A stretch of DNA of 64,000 nt, taken from NCBI RefSeq assembly GCF_902729405.1, contig NZ_LR746496.1, forward strand, positions 3,348,001 to 3,412,000, written 5' to 3'. Of this stretch, positions 26,625 to 42,776 are shown piece after piece. The DNA comes from Acididesulfobacillus acetoxydans (lineage in GTDB: Bacteria > Bacillota > Desulfitobacteriia > Desulfitobacteriales > Desulfitobacteriaceae). The notes below the pieces were generated by a model, which worked only from the letters and a program-made list of their open reading frames with translations, was not told where the DNA came from and did no database searches. Each line of letters opens with the position of its first letter. Positions within the stretch are counted from its first letter, which is position 1. The translations under genes were made by a program, and so were the position numbers.

Positions 26625-26717
26625 GAAGCGGGCTTTCTTCAAACCCGCTTCCCATAAGGGCTATTTGGTGGAGGTAAGCGGGATCGAACCGCTGGCCTCT
26701 AGAGTGCGATTCTAGCG
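26625..26717. repeat. attachment-site repeat, left copy (tRNA-Ala 3' fragment plus terminator)
   Basis: 93 bp identical by eye to 42684-42776. It contains the last 52 bases of tRNA-Ala(CGC), including CCA (26666-26717), and the AAGCGGG...CCCGCTT terminator hairpin. Beyond 26717 the sequence departs from the tRNA, so this copy is not a functional tRNA. Confidence 0.93.
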
Positions 26718-26817
26718 TGTTTGGTTTCTTCTATTCTCGTATAAACCCTGCAAGCCTTGTGTAGTAAGGGTTCTAGGTTCCCTAGAATGATTCTATTTTC
26801 CTTCTTTTACCGTCTAG

Positions 26818-26859
26818 TTGTGGTCATTTTCATCCCAATTGTGGTCAAAATTGTGGTCA
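26818..26859. promoter_or_regulatory. three TTGTGGTCA boxes near attL, likely integrase arm sites
   Basis: TTGTGGTCA occurs at 26818-26826, 26839-26847 and 26851-26859, between the att repeat and the integrase stop. Matching boxes lie near the other end at 42638-42646 and 42651-42659 (the last reads TAGTGGTCA). Arm-type binding sites for a tyrosine integrase are the natural reading. A TTCTAGG-TTC-CCTAGAA inverted repeat at 26771-26787 adds a further candidate site. Confidence 0.6.
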
Positions 26860-26898
26860 ACCTCCTTCAGGTAGAGGCCAAGTTTGCATGGGTAGAGG

Positions 26899-28071
26899 CT
26901 ACTCGTTTATGAGGCTCGCCAACTTGTCAACGGCCCGCTTTTTATCCTCCAGTGTGGAATGAACGTAAGTTCCCAGCGTCGTCCGAATGTCTGCGTGTCC
27001 CAGTAATTCCTGCAAGTTTTTCGGGTTCTCCCTGGCCTGCGCAAGCATCGTTCCGAAGGTGTGCCTCAGAGTGTGAACTCGAATATCGTTACGCAGTTCC
27101 GCTTTTTCCAGAATTATTTTCAATTTTCGCAAGAACCACCGCGGGTCTACGGGCTTCCCATACCCGTTATCGAAAATATAACTATCTTCCGAGTGTTTTT
27201 GCCCCAACGCCAATTTCTGCTCAATCTGAGCGGCCCTGTGCGCCTTTAGGAGGGAGACAATTTCATTCGGCAATGGGATGTCCCGCACTCCAGCCTTGGT
27301 CTTAGGGGGTGACTCCACGATTTGAGTGCCCTTTCCTCCCGGCTTGCCAATTCGACCAATTGAGCGTTCAACATGAAGAACTCCGTCATTAAGGTTAGCA
27401 TTTTTCCACCGCAAGGCTAGCAACTCGCCTTTTCTCAACCCTGTGTGCAAGTCAAGGACAAACATTGGATAGAAGGGATCGCCCTTGGCGGCCTTTAGAA
27501 ATTTCTGTAACTCTTCTTGGTTAAACGGCTTTACCTCCCTAGCCTCCACCCTAGGCCTCTTGATCTGCTTTGAACTATCCGGGTTGTAAAGAATATGCTT
27601 TTCCTCTACCGCGTAGTCAAGGCAGCCACGAATGAGCAAATGCATCAAATTGATTGCGCTGCCGGATAGCCTTCCGGTTTTTTTATTGTAAAAATCCTGC
27701 AGCGTGTCAGTGTTCAATTTTTGAAGCTCAATACCCCCTAGCTCGGGCTTAATGTGGTTTTTGACATGTGAATGATAAAGCGAGTAAGTAGATTCCCTGA
27801 TATTGGGTTTTACGTATCGATCAAGCCAAGCGGATAGGTAGTCCCCAAACAAAACTTTCTTGGGTTCCACATAAGTTCCCGTCCGCGTGGCCGTCAGATA
27901 TTCGTCTCGCTTCGCCCTAGCCTCTGCCTGCGAGTGTCCGTAGAAGGTTTTGAATTTTTGTTTTCCTGTAAGGGGGTCGATCTCTGTTGGCACCCTTGCT
28001 TCCCAGCGTCCATCTGACCGCTCACGCAACATGCCTTCGCCGTTGGCTCTTTTCCTTGATTTCTTACTCAT
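26899..28071 (-). CDS. int: tyrosine-type site-specific integrase
   Basis: 390 residues in the usual three parts: AP2-like arm-binding domain (residues 10-55, GRWEARVPTEIDPLTGKQKF), SAM-like core-binding domain (70-170) and catalytic domain. Catalytic residues seen are Arg in HTGLRKGELLALRW, His/Arg in HTLRHTFGTM, His in LGHADIRTT and the nucleophile Tyr in LGTYVHST. It is the Tn916/phage integrase type used for tRNA 3'-end insertion. AAAGGGG precedes the ATG. It lies next to attL and reads toward it. Confidence 0.95.
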   Translation of the reverse strand: MSKKSRKRANGEGMLRERSDGRWEARVPTEIDPLTGKQKFKTFYGHSQAEARAKRDEYLTATRTGTYVEPKKVLFGDYLSAWLDRYVKPNIRESTYSLYHSHVKNHIKPELGGIELQKLNTDTLQDFYNKKTGRLSGSAINLMHLLIRGCLDYAVEEKHILYNPDSSKQIKRPRVEAREVKPFNQEELQKFLKAAKGDPFYPMFVLDLHTGLRKGELLALRWKNANLNDGVLHVERSIGRIGKPGGKGTQIVESPPKTKAGVRDIPLPNEIVSLLKAHRAAQIEQKLALGQKHSEDSYIFDNGYGKPVDPRWFLRKLKIILEKAELRNDIRVHTLRHTFGTMLAQARENPKNLQELLGHADIRTTLGTYVHSTLEDKKRAVDKLASLINE

Positions 28072-28113
28072 GGCTTACCCCTTTCCCGTCCTCCACAATG
28101 CCCCACAAGGCCC

Positions 28114-28335
28114 CTAGTGACTATCAGGGGCCTCATCAGGAATGTACTCCAATAGATCCCCCGGCTGACAGTCAAGCGTTTTGCAGATCTCGTTCAGGTG
28201 GTCAACCTCCAGTCGTTGAGTCGTTTCGTGATAGAGCTTTGAAACCGTACCAGGCCGAATGCCCGTTTTCATGGTCAAGGCTCTTTGTGTCATCTTGTGT
28301 TTGCCCAATAAGTCAGACAGCTTAATCTTAATCAA
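28114..28335 (-). CDS. XRE-family repressor-like HTH protein
   Basis: 73 residues from TTG 28335, set by AAGGAGG seven bases upstream. IKIKLSDLLGKHKMTQRALT then MKTGIRPGTVSKLYH is a Cro/C1-type HTH; the tail LDCQPGDLLEYIPD is typical of short XRE proteins. It lies 42 bases upstream of the integrase on the same strand and divergently from the gene at 28572, the usual place for an element's lysogeny or Stl-like master repressor. Confidence 0.88.
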   Translation of the reverse strand: MIKIKLSDLLGKHKMTQRALTMKTGIRPGTVSKLYHETTQRLEVDHLNEICKTLDCQPGDLLEYIPDEAPDSH

Positions 28336-28393
28336 GTGAACACCTCCTTCTCTTGTTATTATACCATACATGAAATTTATTATGCAAATACTC

Positions 28394-28422
28394 TTGATAT
28401 GGCACCTCTAAAGTATTATACT
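28394..28422 (+). promoter_or_regulatory. sigma-A promoter, rightward, in the divergent control region
   Basis: TTGATA (28394-28399), 17 bases, TATACT (28417-28422). It drives the gene at 28572. The leader holds a CCGATTT-GA-AATCGGG hairpin near 28529. On the other strand a TATAAT-like box near 28360 could serve the XRE gene. Confidence 0.55.
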
Positions 28423-41406: not shown

Positions 41407-41435
41407 TTGTTTTTTCTCGTTTGATATCGTATAAT
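41407..41435 (+). promoter_or_regulatory. sigma-A promoter of the cargo gene
   Basis: TTGTTT (41407-41412), 17 bases, TATAAT (41430-41435), 29 bases before the GTG start. It suggests constitutive expression independent of the element's operons. The remaining gene-free bases from 41175 show nothing else. Confidence 0.65.
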
Positions 41436-41463
41436 TAAAGAATAATATAGGGGGTGTACAGGG

Positions 41464-42588
41464 GTGTACAATGTAGACATAGAGACACGACCAAAATTGC
41501 GACCATCCAAACTAAAACTTACCCCACGCAATAATGTAGAATTTTGGTTGGAGTGGGACCCTTCCCCTGGGGGGAAATTTATCCCCCAAGGAGAATTACT
41601 TCAGTTCGAGAAAGATTTTCGGATACTCATAAAAGCTGCCAGTTTGTTGCAATACCCTCCGTCTCGCGCTAAAGAGTTTTTGCAAGGGAATGAATACGAC
41701 CTGTTCCAAAAAGTAAATGGCAATGGCCTCAATAACCCGGAAAGCCCGCTACTGCATTTTTGGGAACGGTACGGGCCACCCTTTCAGGTAAAAGGAAACC
41801 GCATGCCCCTCAGTTCCCTAATTGGGACAGCCCAATGGGTTCAGGAAATTTTAGACATTTACCAACGCATAACCGCACCGGAACGAGCAATGCCGCCAGC
41901 CGTTGGATTATTACGGGATGATTTCATGGCAACAGCCTTCGCCTATGAAGCAGAACACCGGGATAAAATTCCTAAGTATTGGATCAAGGTGTATACCGCT
42001 TTCTTCACTGAAATGCCCCAAACCCAATGGATACCCTCTGATAAGTTCCCCCGTCCAAGAGTAAAAGGTTCTGAAGAGTATTGGTCAAAACTCCCTTTTG
42101 TGCTACCTCATCCCCCTTGTGAAATGCGAACCCCATCGAGGGAGGATCTTAAAGAATGGCAACGCAAGAACCTAATTTTTAACATTACCCATTATTTGTC
42201 AAAGCAAAGGGTGTCTTTCACTGTGGGGAAATCGCTTCAACTCAAAGGGTATTTGACCGATCTTTTGTCTTGCTTTCTTTTAAACACACTGGAAACAATA
42301 GAGGGATTGAAACCCAAAAGACTTTGTGAGTGTGGTTGTGGTGAATCGGTGTATGGTTCAGGAAAATTTGTTAACCGCAGGCACTACGAGAAAGCAAGAG
42401 ATTCTCGCCCTGATAGAAAAATAAAGTCTGGGCTCCGTACTAAGAAAATTAGGTTGGAGATTACTGAACAGCAACATAGGGAGCTGTGTAAGGAGGTAGA
42501 TGATCTATTTAAGAATAATAATTCTGAGCAGTACATCCGAGAGAAGATCGAATTACAGTTGAGAGACATAAAAAGAGCCGGGAAATAA
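41464..42588 (+). CDS. orphan cargo protein with C-terminal Cys cluster
   Basis: 374 residues, not recognised. It is the only rightward gene near attR and has its own promoter. The N-terminal 250 residues are rich in aromatic residues (NVEFWLEWDPSPGGKFIPQG; PLLHFWERYGPPFQVKG). Near residue 305 PKRLCECGCGESVYGSGKFV then NRRHYEKARDSRPDR forms a small zinc-finger-like motif (C-x-C-x-C ... H) as in CGNR-type or HTH-linked fingers. The C-terminal 60 residues are basic and helical. Codon use is more AT-rich than the operon opposite. Position and promoter are those of accessory (for example defence) genes, but function is unknown. Confidence 0.75.
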   Translation: MYNVDIETRPKLRPSKLKLTPRNNVEFWLEWDPSPGGKFIPQGELLQFEKDFRILIKAASLLQYPPSRAKEFLQGNEYDLFQKVNGNGLNNPESPLLHFWERYGPPFQVKGNRMPLSSLIGTAQWVQEILDIYQRITAPERAMPPAVGLLRDDFMATAFAYEAEHRDKIPKYWIKVYTAFFTEMPQTQWIPSDKFPRPRVKGSEEYWSKLPFVLPHPPCEMRTPSREDLKEWQRKNLIFNITHYLSKQRVSFTVGKSLQLKGYLTDLLSCFLLNTLETIEGLKPKRLCECGCGESVYGSGKFVNRRHYEKARDSRPDRKIKSGLRTKKIRLEITEQQHRELCKEVDDLFKNNNSEQYIREKIELQLRDIKRAGK

Positions 42589-42637
42589 CTCCCGGCTTTC
42601 GCCTTGCCCTGTCTATTCCTTTTTGAGCTCGTCCCCG

Positions 42638-42659
42638 TTGTGGTCAAATTTAGTGGTCA
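42638..42659. promoter_or_regulatory. two GTGGTCA boxes near attR, likely integrase arm sites
   Basis: TTGTGGTCA (42638-42646) and TAGTGGTCA (42651-42659) mirror the three boxes near attL (26818-26859), at similar distance from the att repeat. Confidence 0.55.
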
Positions 42660-42683
42660 AAATGCTTCATATGTAAAATAAAG

Positions 42684-42710
42684 GAAGCGGGCTTTCTTCA
42701 AACCCGCTTC
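42684..42710 (-). terminator. intrinsic terminator of the tRNA-Ala gene
   Basis: GAAGCGGG-N11-CCCGCTTC-type hairpin followed on the minus strand by CTTTATTTTA. It lies within the att repeat and is duplicated at 26625-26651. Confidence 0.75.
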
Positions 42711-42776
42711 CCATAAGGGCTATTTGGTGGAGGTAAGCGGGATCGAACCGCTGGCCTCTAGAGTGCGATTCTAGCG
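42684..42776. repeat. attachment-site repeat, right copy
   Basis: 93 bp identical by eye to 26625-26717. It overlaps the intact tRNA-Ala gene up to the anticodon stem and includes the terminator. Confidence 0.93.

What the first reader, a model, noticed from the sequence alone, without database searches (positions are those of the whole stretch)
26625..42776. Satellite-like island with TerS and its own tape-measure/lysin protein but no other virion gene
Seen: 93-bp att repeats around a 16-kb unit carrying integrase, XRE repressor, AlpA-like HTH, CHC2 primase + DUF3987, TerS-like protein and a 971-residue tape-measure-like protein ending in a glucosaminidase domain. Known: int + Stl-type repressor + AlpA + primase + TerS is the core of phage-inducible chromosomal islands, which hijack helper capsids. 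Inference: this island may redirect a helper's DNA packaging through TerS and also replace the tape measure, so setting tail length or the entry enzyme. I know of no described satellite with that combination. The leftward replication operon and the extra sigma factor are also unusual.
Basis: partly seen in the sequence, partly recalled or inferred. Interest (0 to 1): 0.85.

Follow-up and report, generated by a model that had tools for sequence, protein, structure and literature searches.

The report
Phage satellite with its own tail-ruler gene
A 16-kb mobile island in a bacterium related to Desulfosporosinus looks like a virus parasite that carries its own packaging label and its own tail-ruler protein with a cell-wall-cutting end, so it may rebuild part of its helper virus's tail, as satellites in cholera bacteria have been shown to do.

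Summary
A 16,059-bp element lies between exact 93-bp att repeats at tRNA-Ala, with integrase, XRE and AlpA-like regulators, CHC2 primase, DUF3987-like helicase, iteron cluster, sigma factor, TerS and a 971-aa protein. No TerL, portal or capsid relative was found in it, and four TerL/tail family searches of the host genome were empty. The 971-aa protein is a real tape-measure relative: about 42% identical, over its first 793 residues, to a protein that lies one inverted gene away from a contractile-tail baseplate module in a genome of the same family, and similar to the CampHawk tape measure. The C-terminal wall enzyme differs (glucosaminidase here, SLT there). TerS without TerL recurs in a Desulfosporosinus island, beside a probable half-length piece of another tape-measure type. 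Best reading: a TerS-bearing phage satellite that also supplies the tape measure. Satellite tape measures were demonstrated in Vibrio PLEs in 2026 and are predicted in some cf-PICIs, so this is a new variant, not a new kind. Helper, induction and function are untested; a remnant prophage is the main rival.

The parts
26625..26717 (.). attL, 93-bp direct repeat
   Evidence: identical in 93 of 93 bases to 42684-42776
26899..28071 (-). tyrosine integrase, 390 aa
   Evidence: PF00589 1.7e-25, phrog_1 3.4e-77
28114..28371 (-). XRE/Cro-type repressor, 85 aa
   Evidence: PF13443 1.9e-21; 42% over 60 residues to a stretch beside the integrase of the G033 island
28572..28895 (+). small protein, 107 aa, unknown
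   Evidence: phrog_28204 8e-4, unknown function
29479..30099 (-). 206-aa protein, unknown
   Evidence: ORF with ribosome-binding-like leader; best family match phrog_1399 at 0.009, unknown function; no PADLOC match
30104..30910 (-). sigma-70 family factor
   Evidence: PF04542 8.1e-7, TIGR02937 2.8e-14 (over cut-off), phrog_351 4.4e-22
31899..32483 (-). serine recombinase (DNA-invertase type), 194 aa
   Evidence: PF00239 6.8e-44, phrog_125 1.4e-65
32655..33146 (-). terminase small subunit TerS, 163 aa
   Evidence: phrog_4044 1.9e-35; 46-59% to TerS of phage loci and of two related islands
33677..36592 (-). tape measure protein with C-terminal glucosaminidase, 971 aa
   Evidence: PF01832 at residues 812-930; 41.6% over 1-793 to a protein near a baseplate module; CampHawk tape measure, 31% over 84 residues, E=5e-7 pairwise
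36585..36851 (-). 88-aa protein overlapping the tape measure start by 8 bases
   Evidence: sequence; no phage match by tblastn, no PHROG match, Pfam best 0.1; model with pLDDT 71 gave no PDB match under E=0.001, so no support for a tail assembly chaperone
37047..37361 (-). 104-aa protein; weak similarity to a 124-aa protein just upstream of TerS in the G033 island
   Evidence: BLASTP E=0.001, 24% over 37 residues
37839..38099 (-). YozE-like small protein
   Evidence: PF06855 1.2e-11
38064..38988 (.). iteron clusters, candidate replication origin (main set 38749-38988, inverted second set 38064-38160)
   Evidence: TTAATGCGCA 6 of 6 and GCGCAAAAAG 7 of 8 window copies lie here; expected 0.06 and 0.36 in the whole window
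38133..38492 (-). 119-aa protein, unknown
   Evidence: ORF; no family
38452..38748 (-). 98-aa protein, unknown
   Evidence: ORF; only a 0.13 Pfam match, no PHROG
38944..40377 (-). DUF3987-like primase/helicase, 477 aa
   Evidence: phrog_10514 1.6e-11, phrog_3022 1.5e-10; phage DUF3987 place 27%, E=2e-26
40301..40888 (-). CHC2 zinc-finger primase, 195 aa
   Evidence: PF01807 5.3e-15; 38% over 138 columns to the primase of the G428 island
40953..41174 (-). AlpA/excisionase-like HTH, 73 aa
   Evidence: PF12728 1.3e-6; 51% over 70 residues to the AlpA-like protein of the G033 island
41464..42588 (+). 374-aa protein divergent from AlpA, Cys-rich end; candidate regulator by position only
   Evidence: no family; proteins in a similar divergent position occur in G033 and G428, the latter with a CGNR zinc finger match below cut-off, but no significant similarity to G033's
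42684..42776 (.). attR, 93-bp repeat, overlapping the 3' part of tRNA-Ala

Best explanation
The unit is an integrated phage satellite of PICI-like build in a bacterium of the family of Desulfosporosinus. Shown: it is bounded by exact att repeats at a tRNA; it carries its own integrase, AlpA-like factor, primase and helicase with an iteron cluster, and a TerS without TerL; no capsid, portal or tail gene was found apart from a full-length tape measure with a lysin domain. Inferred: on infection or induction of a contractile-tailed helper the AlpA-led leftward series is switched on, the island excises and replicates, its TerS recruits the helper's TerL to island DNA, and its tape measure is built into tails otherwise made of helper proteins. 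It thereby sets tail length and brings a glucosaminidase for crossing the wall, as Vibrio PLEs do with their own tape measures.
For: Boundaries. Module content. Iterons next to the helicase gene. TerS of a phage family in which 35 of 40 loci examined have a TerL-like ORF beside TerS, while this island and the G033 island do not. Tape measure colinear with a protein near a baseplate module, with the catalytic domain exchanged. Intact 971-codon frame with a Shine-Dalgarno-like leader. A related island in Desulfosporosinus has TerS, a serine recombinase and a probable tape-measure piece but no TerL in the 3.7 kb held after TerS, and G428/G343 have the CHC2 primase-helicase-TerS layout. PLE precedent.
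Against: No helper was found in the genome: PF03354, phrog_2, PF10145 and PF04865 gave 0 matches in G000. No tail assembly chaperone or baseplate hub was recognised, which PLE11 carries. The G033 piece is 257 aa against 512 aa in its phage relative, its tape-measure family match is weak (phrog_12506, E=0.0015; its best family has no known function), so that copy may be a fragment or something else. The three island TerS do not form one clade. The tape measure family was found in 2 of 82 genomes of the class, this one included (E<=1e-10), and in none of the 397 other genomes sampled from the phylum (E<=1e-15), so its link with islands rests on one full-length case. Induction, packaging and transfer are untested.
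Confidence: 0.6

Rival explanations
1. Remnant prophage: a contractile-tailed phage lost TerL, head and most tail genes by deletion and rearrangement, leaving TerS and the tape measure by chance.
For: Only two virion-type genes remain; a half-length tape-measure-like piece in the G033 island and a tape-measure-like gene with two stops inside the match in G016 suggest that such genes decay in this family.
Against: The order tape measure then TerS is not what one deletion from the usual TerS-TerL-head-tail order (recalled) gives; no fragment of TerL, portal or capsid was found; the frames used are open and the att copies identical; TerS without TerL recurs in a second island.
Confidence: 0.22
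2. A real TerS-type satellite in which the tape measure is not a virion part but a weapon or passenger, for example a dominant-negative decoy that jams helper tail assembly, or recently acquired cargo.
For: Other elements encode proteins that attack phage tape measures (Rta of the satellite PLE11; Tab of a prophage, passages). No tail assembly chaperone was recognised beside the gene.
Against: Full length and a retained, exchanged wall-degrading domain suit a working tape measure more than a decoy.
Confidence: 0.13
3. A non-viral integrative element whose 971-aa protein is a secreted or surface cell-wall hydrolase.
For: The glucosaminidase domain also matches flagellar FlgJ-type hydrolases, far below their cut-offs.
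Against: The N-terminal 793 residues match a protein near a baseplate module, and residues 388-468 the CampHawk tape measure; TerS lies beside it.
Confidence: 0.03

Closest known systems
Vibrio cholerae PLE satellites with own TMP, TAC and, in some, BhuB (PMC12987554; section 8 read whole, other passages)
   Same: Integrated satellite-type element carrying its own tape measure while lacking a full virion gene set; suspected chimeric tails.
   Different: PLEs carry TAC and some a baseplate hub; none recognised here. This island has TerS and a lysin-tipped tape measure, and a host near Desulfosporosinus; no experimental proof here. No PLE sequence was compared.
Gram-positive PICIs/SaPIs with TerS (passages, passages, otherwise recalled)
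   Same: Integrase at an att site, repressor, primase/replication genes, TerS without TerL, no capsid genes.
   Different: 16 kb against a PICI mean of 9.5 kb (passage); AlpA-led leftward series rather than the SaPI stl/str divergence (recalled); own sigma factor, serine recombinase and tape measure.
cf-PICIs
   Same: Some are predicted to carry tmp genes (Extended Data Fig. 10 legend of PMC12987554).
   Different: cf-PICIs encode capsid, portal, TerL and HNH (passage); none found here.
SPO1-like (CampHawk) tape measure; phrog_13572, tail protein with lysin activity
   Same: Core region similarity (G039 relative to phrog_13572; window protein to CampHawk).
   Different: In CampHawk it lies in a tail module after sheath, tube and chaperone.
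Satellites with other tail-type genes: AH14b (PMC4936722) and MiniFlayer (PMC10690885), passages only
   Same: AH14b is a 16.8-kb satellite with a homologue of its helper's tail assembly protein I; MiniFlayer has its own tail fibre.
   Different: AH14b has no terminase and that protein was not found in particles; MiniFlayer encodes capsid and terminase; no tape measure is reported in the passages seen.

Membership tests
PICI (TerS type) | integrase and att repeats at a specific site | tested here: met
PICI (TerS type) | own primase/replication genes with an origin | tested here: met
   genes; iterons; that they act as an origin is inferred
PICI (TerS type) | TerS present, TerL and capsid genes absent | tested here: met
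   within the reach of these searches
PICI (TerS type) | master repressor (Stl or AlpA-controlled switch) of known arrangement | tested here: inconclusive
   XRE and AlpA-like genes present but not in the SaPI arrangement (recalled); the 374-aa divergent protein has no family
PICI (TerS type) | induction and packaging by a helper phage | not testable with these tools
   needs experiment; no helper TerL found in the genome with two families
cf-PICI | capsid, portal, TerL genes | tested here: not met
PLE | own tape measure | tested here: met
PLE | own tail assembly chaperone | tested here: inconclusive
   88-aa neighbour has no phage relative and no significant fold match; the other small proteins had no such family match
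PLE | PLE gene set of Vibrio | not tested
   no PLE sequence was compared
complete or near-complete prophage | TerL, portal, capsid and tail genes | tested here: not met
   only TerS and tape measure found

The most novel reading that the evidence does not exclude
An independent lineage of Bacillota satellites re-specifies a helper's particle at two points at once: which DNA enters (own TerS) and what the tail ruler and wall-entry enzyme are (own tape measure with an exchangeable lysin tip). The catalytic tip can be swapped (glucosaminidase or SLT on one scaffold), so the satellite could tune entry to cell walls other than those its helper enters best.
Probability: 0.3. Interest if true: 0.85.

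Novelty: new variant of a known kind. Interest (0 to 1): 0.62.

Why it matters
[quoted passage not shown] An island in a distant host that pairs TerS with a full-length tape measure, and has no capsid genes that I could find, would show convergent or widespread tail piracy and offers a one-gene test of it. The lysin tip makes a link between satellite tail genes and host entry testable.

Tried and rejected
Searches for close relatives of the 971-aa protein in genome contigs and viral contigs gave none. The DUF3987-like protein had no relative in the 72 other genomes of the order at E<=1e-5 and none in viral contigs. Structure of the tape measure failed (mean pLDDT 35.7) and is not used; the 88-aa model gave no PDB match below E=0.001. 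phrog_2 hits in G001 and G039 look like helicases rather than TerL, and those in G033 sit next to portal-like ORFs (both my reading, no family search). A CampHawk 90-aa protein in the same place as the 88-aa protein is not similar (E=0.48). PADLOC gave no match for 10 of the island's proteins; NCBIfam matches of the AlpA-like and sigma proteins to defence models MADS1 and MzaA are far below cut-off. The own-genome second hit of the 971-aa protein (E=5.5e-4) falls in a low-complexity stretch among metabolic-looking genes and was dropped. The G428 island was considered as further support for TerS plus tape measure, but its ORF after TerS runs off the contig and its tape-measure match is weak (phrog_1535, E=5.5e-4, a helix-rich stretch), so I count it only for the replication-TerS layout. 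I looked for a tRNA-Thr repeat at the far end of the G033 contig and found none, so the right end of that island is unknown. Label caution: L068 is called phage in the tree but is a solitary TerS with one stop; the other non-island rows have a TerL-like neighbour. L013 was left out of the counts because it is the same contig as L012.
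Full report
Setting. The window is bases 3,348,001-3,412,000 of a single-contig 4.52-Mb genome, G000. A genome of the same family, G033, has a contig that matches one of Desulfosporosinus sp. MAG_BO167 in length and in the place of TerS, so the host belongs near Desulfosporosinus; its own name was not given and I did not establish it.

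The island. Two 93-bp stretches, 26625-26717 and 42684-42776, are identical in 93 of 93 bases, and the right copy overlaps the 3' part of a tRNA-Ala gene. The element is 16,059 bp. From the right: a 374-aa protein (+) stands back to back with an AlpA-like gene (-), which heads a leftward series: CHC2 primase, DUF3987-like helicase, two small genes flanked by inverted iteron sets, further small genes, an 88-aa gene overlapping the start of the 971-aa gene by 8 bases, the 971-aa gene, TerS, a serine recombinase, a sigma factor and a 206-aa gene; then one small gene on the other strand, an XRE repressor and the integrase.

Replication module. TTAATGCGCA occurs 6 times in the 64-kb window, all within 38069-38909 (expected 0.06), and GCGCAAAAAG 8 times, 7 of them within 38123-38970 (expected 0.36). 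The main cluster lies at and just past the end of the helicase gene. That is where a PICI origin would be expected (recalled); function was not tested.

The 971-aa protein. It ends in a glucosaminidase domain (PF01832, residues 812-930). By tblastn it matched 22 phage records; the 20 listed all lie within residues 804-959, the enzyme. A search of 73 genomes of the order at E<=1e-5 found, besides its own, one long relative in G039 and a short match in G016. The G039 protein (905 aa) is 41.6% identical over residues 1-793 (E=2e-161; 46% over the best piece). It is followed, after one gene on the other strand (PASTA domains), by a protein with a weak match to a tail-lysin family (phrog_1015, 2.6e-5), an unassigned protein, a tail-tube-initiator protein with LysM, another unassigned protein, a sheath-initiator match below cut-off, baseplate J (3e-16), a baseplate-family match and genes that I read as fibres. 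Its own end is an SLT transglycosylase, and a short stretch after the enzyme aligns again. So one tape-measure scaffold carries two different wall enzymes. The relative matches phrog_13572, tail protein with lysin activity, at 5.8e-12. The window protein itself matches the annotated tape measure of Bacillus phage CampHawk (31% over 84 residues, pairwise E=5e-7; the profile comparison of the pair gave only 58% probability, E=1e-4; phage context). The tape-measure reading therefore does not rest on composition alone.

TerS and the missing TerL. The 163-aa protein belongs to phrog_4044 (1.9e-35). I examined 40 loci with this TerS, window included (loci; several are near-duplicates). In 35 of 40 an ORF of about 250-600 aa within 3 kb after TerS matches its counterpart in other loci, and I read it as TerL by size, place and mutual similarity; only some show a Walker-like motif. 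The five without are the window, the G033 island (3.7 kb held), G428 (888 bases held), G343 (254 bases held) and a solitary TerS with one stop in G224. In the island no TerL, portal or capsid relative was found by tblastn with 179 ORFs of 11 loci or by PHROG profiles of 20 island proteins.

Related islands. G033 has, beside a tRNA-Thr, an integrase, and further on an AlpA-like gene 51% identical to the window's, a primase/helicase, TerS 52% identical, a serine recombinase, and a 257-aa ORF that matches a 512-aa hypothetical protein of Agathobaculum phages (32%, E=2e-30), a family of unknown function (phrog_22539, 1.8e-36) and, weakly, a tape-measure family (phrog_12506, 0.0015). The window's tape measure has no tblastn match there. 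The contig ends 104 bases later. The ORF is half the length of its relative, so it may be a fragment. G428 and G343 share a layout of a Cys-rich protein, CHC2 primase (38%), DUF927 helicase and TerS (58%); the ORF after TerS runs off the G428 contig. In a tree of 25 TerS the three islands do not group together (3 changes; few supported forks), which fits repeated recruitment of TerS from local phages but proves nothing.

Helper. PF03354, phrog_2, PF10145 and PF04865 found nothing in G000; each rang in some of the 14 control genomes. A helper, if any, is not resident, or is too distant for these models. G033 has two loci with TerL-like and portal-like ORFs (my reading).

Mechanism. Shown: anatomy and homologies above. 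Inferred: helper-triggered excision and replication; TerS steering the helper TerL; island tape measure built into helper tails, with the glucosaminidase opening the wall. Likeness to PLEs is the ground for the last step: in PLE11 the satellite's tape measure replaces the phage's, tails are about 10 nm shorter, and loss of tmp cuts transfer by about 99.9%, 96% and 99% in PLE11, PLE1 and PLE4 (PMC12987554, section 8 read whole). I recognised no chaperone or hub gene here, and compared no PLE sequence, so membership of PLEs is not claimed; cf-PICI membership fails for want of capsid genes; PICI membership is met in gene content and open in induction and packaging.

Literature. Searches listed 7 of 7, 20 of 22, 15 of 22, 2 of 2 and 12 of 59 papers; in these listings I saw no described Bacillota satellite that pairs TerS with a tape measure while lacking capsid genes. 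PMC12987554 states that no other satellites had been reported to encode a tape measure and shows putative tmp genes in other Vibrio elements and some cf-PICIs (passages); which hosts those cf-PICIs have I did not see. Tail-type genes in satellites are older news: AH14b and MiniFlayer (passages). Passages only were read of PMC4936722, PMC11364771, PMC10884400, PMC10803314, PMC10690885 and PMC12846349.

Verdict. The main doubt is whether the tape measure is used or left over; one full-length case cannot settle that.

Noticed in passing
window 43834-44298: An ORF of 154 aa built largely on a tandem repeat of ACAAGAGAC (about 15 copies at 43885-44017), just right of the island.
   Followed up: no
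window 60988-61147: A 30-base unit repeated 5.4 times at 97% match.
   Followed up: no
window 25701-26211: Two small ORFs left of attL that look like a HEPN/MNT toxin-antitoxin pair by recalled motif; no family search was run on them.
   Followed up: no
L052 (G016:C34) 12935-19673: A tape-measure-like gene with a glucosaminidase end, with stops inside the match, lies at a contig end near ORFs that I read as holin and endolysin and an integrase: probably a decayed prophage piece in the same family.
   Followed up: partly
L068 (G224:C1) 9518-9862: A solitary TerS relative with one stop, beside dnaK/dnaJ-like ORFs (my reading) and without TerL.
   Followed up: partly
L006 (G039:C221) 347-1057: A homing-type gene (AP2 domain match below cut-off) overlaps the start of the tape measure gene.
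   Followed up: no
window 41175-41463: The divergent gap between the 374-aa gene and AlpA recurs in position in the G033 and G428 islands with a Cys-rich protein on the far side; it may be the control switch of these islands.
   Followed up: partly
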